Shown here: piece by piece, positions 1,872 to 2,005 of the stretch
How the letters are laid out: each line of letters opens with the position of its first letter
Numbering within the stretch: the first letter of the stretch is position 1
Assembly (NCBI RefSeq): GCF_000321225.1
Contig: NW_004450324.1
Span: 2,509,714-2,573,713, forward strand
Length of the DNA: 64,000 bases
Source of the DNA: Odobenus rosmarus divergens
Taxonomy: Eukaryota; Chordata; Mammalia; Carnivora; Odobenidae
Direction of reading: 5' to 3'
The notes under the pieces: generated by a model
Told to the model about the DNA's origin: nothing
The model's database searches: none
The model's input: the letters and a program-made list of their open reading frames with translations, nothing else
Program-made: the position numbers and the translations under genes

Positions 1872-2005
1872 CTCAGTTTACTGTTGCAGTGGTGGCATCG
1901 GAAGCAGGACTTATGAAAACTCTGCTTGTCTGCTACTAGGCGCTCCATTGGATAAACAGTCTTTTGACAAAGTATACATATTTCCTTGTCTTGGAGTAGC
2001 AGCTT
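1872..2005 (-). CDS. XIRP2: XIRP2 dual-frame exon: long-isoform C-terminus, or LIM domain N-terminal part
   Basis: Acceptor ...ACGTTTAG before 2005, donor GTAAAATG after 1872; 134 nt. Entered from the giant exon (phase 1) it completes a GAA codon and encodes 30 further residues (AATPRQGNMYTL... ending RQAEFS), then stops at TAA 1913-1911: the known carboxyl end of the long XIRP2 protein. Entered in phase 0, directly from exon 13962-13832, the same bases encode 44 residues containing CILCQKTVYPMERLVADKQ then FHKSCFRCHHC: cysteines at exon residues 10, 13, 34, 37 and 40 and histidine at 31, spaced C-x2-C-x17-H-x2-C-x2-C-x2-C. That is a complete first LIM zinc finger plus half of the second, very like EPLIN (LIMA1). 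The frame is open across the donor (AAA CTG AG), so the LIM domain finishes in the next exon. Skipping of the giant exon in short XIRP2 isoforms is established; both frames here are read directly. Confidence 0.93.

What the first reader, a model, noticed from the sequence alone, without database searches (positions are those of the whole stretch)
1872..2005. One exon, two proteins: XIRP2 tail and LIM domain in overlapping frames
Seen directly: the 134-nt exon is open in two frames over 92 shared nucleotides (2005 to the stop at 1913-1911). Frame A (after the giant exon) gives a conserved 31-residue tail. Frame B (after exon 13832) gives a LIM start with all six expected metal ligands at correct spacing. 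Both proteins are recognisable as conserved, so nearly every base in the overlap is under constraint from two readings. Giant-exon-skipping XIRP2 isoforms are known in hair cells; the overlapping-frame constraint is much less discussed.
Basis: partly seen in the sequence, partly recalled or inferred. Interest (0 to 1): 0.85.

Follow-up and report, generated by a model that had tools for sequence, protein, structure and literature searches.

The report
XIRP2 exon read in two frames
A short exon of the muscle and hair-cell gene XIRP2 is read in two different frames depending on whether a giant exon before it is included, giving either a short protein tail or half of a zinc-binding domain; this was already described in mice, and only one of the two readings appears to control most of the sequence.

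Summary
The 134-nt exon at 2005-1872 (minus strand) is open in two frames. After the 9,322-nt giant exon (1 mod 3) it gives a 31-residue tail ending at TAA 1913-1911; after the exon ending at 13832 it gives half a LIM domain with six ligands, completed by an exon 4.2 kb past the window.

[quoted passage not shown] Of 175 long XIRP2 proteins seen, 142 end with this tail, mammals to coelacanth; none was seen to end early or late at an exon-8 stop. All 22 same-species tail/LIM pairs tested fit one DNA. All 140 full-length tails are compatible with a LIM in the other frame; of 3,084 control peptides one keeps the ligands, none the motif.

"Nearly every base under constraint from two readings" is not supported. 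The LIM frame dominates: most 4-fold LIM-silent sites vary at a roughly neutral rate and change the tail, and the EPLIN-type paralogue exon shows a similar tail core. What looks selected in the tail frame is its openness, its stop and a few residues. An ancient overprinted tail: real, conserved, known.

The parts
1872..2005 (-). XIRP2 dual-frame exon (mouse exon 8), 134 nt
   Evidence: splice sites and translations; same exon in mouse (PMC10259482)
1914..2005 (-). Frame A: tail of long XIRP2 (first codon split with the giant exon, then 30 codons)
   Evidence: 142 of 175 long database proteins seen end with this tail
1911..1913 (-). Frame A stop TAA; its T is the third base of the LIM His codon CAT
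   Evidence: same stop in all 140 aligned tails, by construction of the tail set, with no early or late end among the 33 proteins left out
1872..2005 (-). [quoted passage not shown] ligand codons at 1978-1976, 1969-1967, 1915-1913, 1906-1904, 1897-1895, 1888-1886
   Evidence: six-ligand pattern in 111 database proteins
3893..13214 (-). Giant Xin-repeat exon, 9,322 nt, remainder 1, donor ATAAGCG|GTAACC; including it shifts the downstream frame
   Evidence: (18 Xin stretches)
13832..13962 (-). Exon upstream of the giant exon, ends in phase 0; joined directly to 2005 in the short form
1990..1991 (-). AG inside the exon, 16 nt from its start; 9 database gene models have the junction expected if it serves as acceptor, joining the giant exon to the LIM frame (may be a prediction artefact)

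Best explanation
A giant non-triplet cassette exon acts as a frame switch. When it is included, the next exon is read in frame A and the protein ends after a 31-residue tail; when it is skipped, the same exon is read in frame B and, with the following exon, gives a LIM domain plus a C-terminal domain. The LIM reading is the older one, inherited with an EPLIN-type exon, and the tail was overprinted on it. Shown here: sequence, phases, conservation of both products, one DNA for both. Shown in mouse by others: both protein forms, differently placed in hair cells. Inferred: that this species makes both; the direction LIM first, tail later; and that selection on frame A mainly keeps it open, keeps the stop and holds a few residues, while the LIM frame sets most bases.
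For: Phases: giant exon remainder 1, upstream exon ends in phase 0. The next exon, found outside the window, completes the LIM and codes a CTD. Tail in 142 of 175 long database proteins seen (139 full length, 3 Xenopus one codon shorter), mammals to coelacanth. 22 of 22 same-species tail/LIM pairs fit one DNA, against 82 of 462 mismatched pairs. 140 of 140 tails (139 database plus window), 28 of them amphibian or coelacanth, admit an open other frame with the LIM ligands at 10, 13 and 31 and the YP[MV]E motif; of 3,084 peptides from the giant exon 1 admits the ligands and 0 the motif. EPLIN-type exon in the same genome: same 134-nt length and splice positions. Mouse: both frames stated, antibodies to each product (PMC10259482). 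Zebrafish: long Xin-repeat and short LIM isoforms (PMC3280289 passages). Frame-A selection: no transition in 77 placentals at three 2-fold sites where a LIM-silent transition would make or break a frame-A stop, against a mean of 3.27 changes at 15 other 2-fold sites.
Against: No RNA or protein from this species was available. The selection test rests on bases inferred from proteins. Over-dispersion weakens it (Poisson 5.6e-5, negative binomial 3.2e-4, both; rank-type 0.012 by hand). One of the three stop-sensitive sites does show two LIM-changing C-to-A changes. Two of the 15 other 2-fold sites also have zero changes. 19 of 175 long database models join the giant exon to exon 9 or the LIM frame instead, so the tail is not the only annotated end.
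Confidence: 0.88

Rival explanations
1. The tail peptide itself is functional and its sequence is under direct selection, so the exon is held by two proteins at once.
For: Tail length and end kept from mammals to coelacanth. Ser14 has 0 changes in 140 sequences (the filter asked for Ser14, but the 3 sequences it removed are not tails). The 4-fold site under Asn20 has 1 change in 77 placentals and 3 in 140 sequences, where six other 4-fold sites average 6.8 and 15.8 (p 0.0084 and 0.00011, one site picked from seven). LIM-changing substitutions silent in the tail are about twice as frequent per site as those changing both (21 per 24.9 sites against 16 per 36.8; p 0.032 in 19 placentals, 0.066 with marsupials and emu).
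Against: Most 4-fold LIM-silent sites vary and alter the tail; mouse and window differ at 9 of 30 tail residues but 5 of 36 LIM-frame residues. The 21/16 contrast is confounded, since tail-silent changes are mostly mild second-position transitions in the LIM. A similar core exists in the EPLIN-type paralogue. RNA-level signals could also hold single sites.
Confidence: 0.4
2. The tail is only a spacer: frame A must stay open so that the stop lies within about 50 nt of the last junction and the long mRNA escapes nonsense-mediated decay.
For: The stop ends 39 nt from the exon end (arithmetic). No early frame-A stop was seen. The 50-nt rule is recalled.
Against: In mouse a stop placed near the start of exon 8 in the short frame, about 125 nt from the junction if that exon is also 134 nt, did not cause decay (PMC10259482). 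Loss of the natural stop would only move termination nearer the junction, yet no such loss was seen.
Confidence: 0.1
3. A third product is normal: the giant exon joined to the LIM frame through the internal AG at 1991-1990 (or other sites).
For: 9 database models share the junction ...S/R|DKE-x-C, among them NCBI-named Ochotona, Microtus, Galemys and Arvicanthis X2. Tail Arg6, compatible with this AG, is in 75 of 77 placentals.
Against: Marsupial and other models reach the LIM by different junctions, as expected of predictors that force a long reading frame; the three inferred marsupial DNAs have GG at that place. No transcript evidence was seen.
Confidence: 0.12

Closest known systems
Mouse Xirp2 exon 8 (Wagner et al. 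2023, eLife, PMC10259482)
   Same: Same exon, same two frames, same products; 108 nt of mouse exon printed in the paper line up without gaps, 14 differences
   Different: Species only; no evolutionary test of the two frames in the passages and section 8 that I read
Zebrafish xirp2a/xirp2b long and LIM-containing short isoforms (PMC3280289, passages)
   Same: Giant exon skipped to make a LIM form
   Different: 'Reading frame' has 0 hits in the main text; zebrafish frames were not tested here
EPLIN (LIMA1) and LIMD2 LIM exons
   Same: Homologous LIM half; the EPLIN-type exon has the same length and splice positions
   Different: No second reading known to me; in this genome both carry CAC at the LIM His, so no frame-A stop there
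Dual-coding exons from non-triplet alternative splicing (PMC13247117, passages)
   Same: Non-triplet event switching the frame of a shared downstream stretch of more than 60 nt
   Different: Here the switch exon is 9.3 kb and one reading ends inside the shared exon; XIRP2 has 0 hits in that main text

Membership tests
XIRP2 orthologue | Giant exon with many Xin repeats | tested here: met
   18 Pfam Xin stretches; 97% identity to Eumetopias XIRP2 over the 261 residues searched
XIRP2 orthologue | Two short exons after the Xin-repeat exon giving LIM and CTD | tested here: met
   exon 8 in the window, exon 9 at C61:2505494 downward
Dual-coding exon by non-triplet splicing | Skipped exon length not a multiple of three | tested here: met
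   9,322 nt, remainder 1
Dual-coding exon by non-triplet splicing | At least 60 shared nt coding in both frames (threshold of PMC13247117) | tested here: met
   92 nt
Dual-coding exon by non-triplet splicing | Both isoforms expressed | not testable with these tools
   shown in mouse (PMC10259482); no RNA for this species
Dual-coding exon by non-triplet splicing | Wobble-site conservation raised by the second frame | tested here: inconclusive
   stop-sensitive sites without transitions, most other 4-fold sites near neutral
LIM domain, EPLIN type | Eight metal ligands: C-x2-C-x17-H-x2-C-x2-C-x2-C here, then two more | tested here: met
   six in exon 8; exon 9 gives ...LHGQIYCKPHF; which residues bind metal is recalled for the family

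The most novel reading that the evidence does not exclude
The overprinted tail, including its stop codon, has been kept by purifying selection since before coelacanths and tetrapods split, which would make XIRP2 exon 8 one of the oldest splice-driven dual-coding exons in vertebrates (rank not searched), with the LIM His codon held at CAT because its third base is the other protein's stop.
Probability: 0.45. Interest if true: 0.6.

Novelty: already known. Interest (0 to 1): 0.4.

Why it matters
XIRP2 is needed for repair of actin cores in mouse hair-cell stereocilia (PMC10259482). A shared exon means that many single variants hit both the long and the short protein: the window itself carries one base (C at 1942 on the coding strand, where relatives read T) that gives Arg for Cys in the LIM and Ala for Val in the tail. 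Variant interpretation and gene editing of this exon must consider both frames. It is also a compact case in which the dominant and the overprinted reading can be told apart.

Tried and rejected
Considered that double openness alone proves two genes: rejected, since 10-19% of random synonymous codings of the LIM stay open. Considered tail similarity as proof of tail selection: rejected as sole proof, because the EPLIN-type exon shows a like core. Tried the intron flank as a neutral yardstick: 20 differences in 80 aligned nt, JC 0.30, short and probably constrained near the splice site; the mouse-carnivore neutral distance of about 0.5 is recalled. A literature search for a neutral tree length gave nothing I used. 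Earlier isoform papers (Francis 2015, Scheffer 2015) were not held under the ids I gave; I know them only as cited in PMC10259482.

Limits and rows dropped: the protein searches list only 120 of 136, 120 of 1,520 and 120 of 195 hits. Of 175 listed proteins over 1,500 aa, 33 lack the tail: 19 models joined to exon 9 or LIM, 12 open frames running into the intron, the partial P0075, and P0280 with an unrelated end. Rate tests used 140 sequences (139 database plus window; 3 Xenopus tails left out), 77 of them placental, of which 5 are unnamed 'lgn' proteins placed by hit order. Parsimony counts were typed into; they count all changes, not transitions alone, and changes hidden by Leu, Arg or Ser codons are missed. 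The pair test used 22 pairs that I picked by name; one (P0076, unnamed) was taken as mouse because its tail equals the mouse DNA reading.

Full report
The window is part of XIRP2 on the minus strand of a carnivore-like genome. A 261-residue stretch near the end of the giant exon is 97% identical to Steller sea lion XIRP2, and the window lies at G000:C61:2509714-2573713. The species was not determined.

Exon 2005-1872 is 134 nt. The giant exon runs 13214-3893, 9,322 nt, remainder 1, and enters exon 8 with one base, giving frame A: 31 residues and TAA at 1913-1911. The exon ending at 13832 ends in phase 0 and gives frame B, a LIM half with six ligands, closest among solved structures to EPLIN and LIMD2. 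The rest of the LIM and a CTD lie in an exon 4,219 nt past the window edge, with a 6,090-nt intron between.

It is known. Wagner et al. 2023 (PMC10259482; I read passages, the outline and section 8; [quoted passage not shown] They used a one-base change that stops the short form and is silent in the long form, and saw long XIRP2 with an antibody to the alternative frame. The zebrafish paper PMC3280289 (passages) describes long Xin-repeat and short LIM isoforms. A 2026 survey of dual-coding splicing, PMC13247117 (passages), does not name XIRP2 in its main text. Searches for XIRP2 with dual-coding or overlapping-frame terms gave no paper or no further report among those listed (20 of 122; 25 of 90).

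Conservation. Of 175 listed database proteins over 1,500 aa, 142 end with the tail (139 full length, 3 Xenopus one codon shorter). Of the other 33 none ends at an early or late exon-8 stop; they are other gene models or open frames running into the intron. The coelacanth tail keeps LSKDSLSNG and ends RQTNLS. The six-ligand LIM pattern is in 111 database proteins, from mammals, a turtle, birds and a gecko; 5 further models that span the region lack it, 4 because they do not read frame B there and 1 by an internal gap. No amphibian or coelacanth LIM protein was in the listing. But all 140 tails (139 database plus window), including 28 amphibian or coelacanth ones, are compatible with an open other frame that has Cys10, Cys13, His31 and the YP[MV]E motif, whereas of 3,084 peptides cut from the giant-exon protein 1 is compatible with the ligands and 0 with the motif. 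For 22 same-species pairs of tail and LIM proteins one DNA encodes both in all 22; among mismatched species 82 of 462 pairs fit.

How strong is the double constraint? The third base of each LIM codon is the first base of a tail codon, so tail proteins reveal LIM-silent changes. In 77 placentals the 4-fold sites at tail positions 3, 4, 5, 17, 20, 24 and 25 average about 7.8 inferred changes on a tree of 8.8 amino-acid changes per site (tree from 2,863 trimmed columns). Taking 0.5 as the mouse-carnivore neutral distance (recalled) and 0.48 as their path on this tree, that is roughly neutral. The 2-fold sites average about 4.1, leaving out three stop-sensitive ones, against about 5.2 expected from the 4-fold mean at a transition bias of 4 (my arithmetic), so a modest slowing there is possible. 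Mouse and window DNA differ at 12 of 92 overlap bases: 7 are LIM-silent and all 7 change the tail; of the other 5, 1 is tail-silent. Nine of 30 tail residues differ, against 5 of 36 LIM-frame residues.

Against pure drift: at three 2-fold sites where a LIM-silent transition would make or break a frame-A stop (tail positions 7, 27 and the stop) there is no such transition in 77 placentals, while 15 other 2-fold sites average 3.27 parsimony changes (Poisson 5.6e-5; negative binomial 3.2e-4). Position 7 does show two C-to-A changes, which alter the LIM. By rank, five of 18 2-fold sites have no transition and all three stop-sensitive ones are among them (10/816, 0.012, by hand). The 4-fold site under tail Asn20 has 1 change in 77 placentals and 3 in 140 sequences, where six other sites average 6.8 and 15.8; it is one site picked from seven. 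In 19 placentals with DNA read or inferred, LIM-silent tail-changing substitutions number 31 per 20.6 sites, LIM-changing tail-silent 21 per 24.9, and both-changing 16 per 36.8; the last two differ at p 0.032 (0.066 with marsupials and emu), a contrast confounded by the mildness of second-position transitions. So the tail frame is probably kept open, with its stop and a few residues, but 'nearly every base' is too strong.

Origin. In the same genome the EPLIN-type LIM exon (L012) has the same 134-nt length and splice positions, and the LIMD2-type exon (L013) the same donor position (named by match to the sequences). Their frame A is open too, and both use CAC at the LIM His, so neither has the XIRP2 stop. 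That the LIM frame is ancestral and the tail an overprint is inference from this homology.

Mechanism, step by step: giant exon in or out (mouse and zebrafish, by others), frame switch (shown here by phase), tail or LIM plus CTD (mouse, by antibodies), different sites in the hair cell (mouse, PMC10259482). Expression in this species was not tested.

Noticed in passing
window 1942 (exon offset 63): The window has CGC (Arg) where five listed fur-seal and true-seal LIM proteins (P0121-P0125) have Cys; the same base makes tail Val into Ala. Arg is also what EPLIN and LIMD2 carry; 8 of 111 LIM proteins have Arg.
   Followed up: partly
window 1991-1990: Internal AG 16 nt into the exon fits the junction of 9 database models that join the giant exon to the LIM frame; marsupial and gecko models use other junctions. 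Possible third isoform or prediction artefact.
   Followed up: partly
L014 (G000:C167:2159858-2159974): A LIM match of the EPLIN/LIMD2 type in one open frame of 159 codons, so perhaps an intronless copy. My motif look-ups did not display it.
   Followed up: no
window about 1470-1560: Sequence that looks like a carnivore tRNA-derived SINE in the intron after exon 8 (recognised by eye, name recalled).
   Followed up: no
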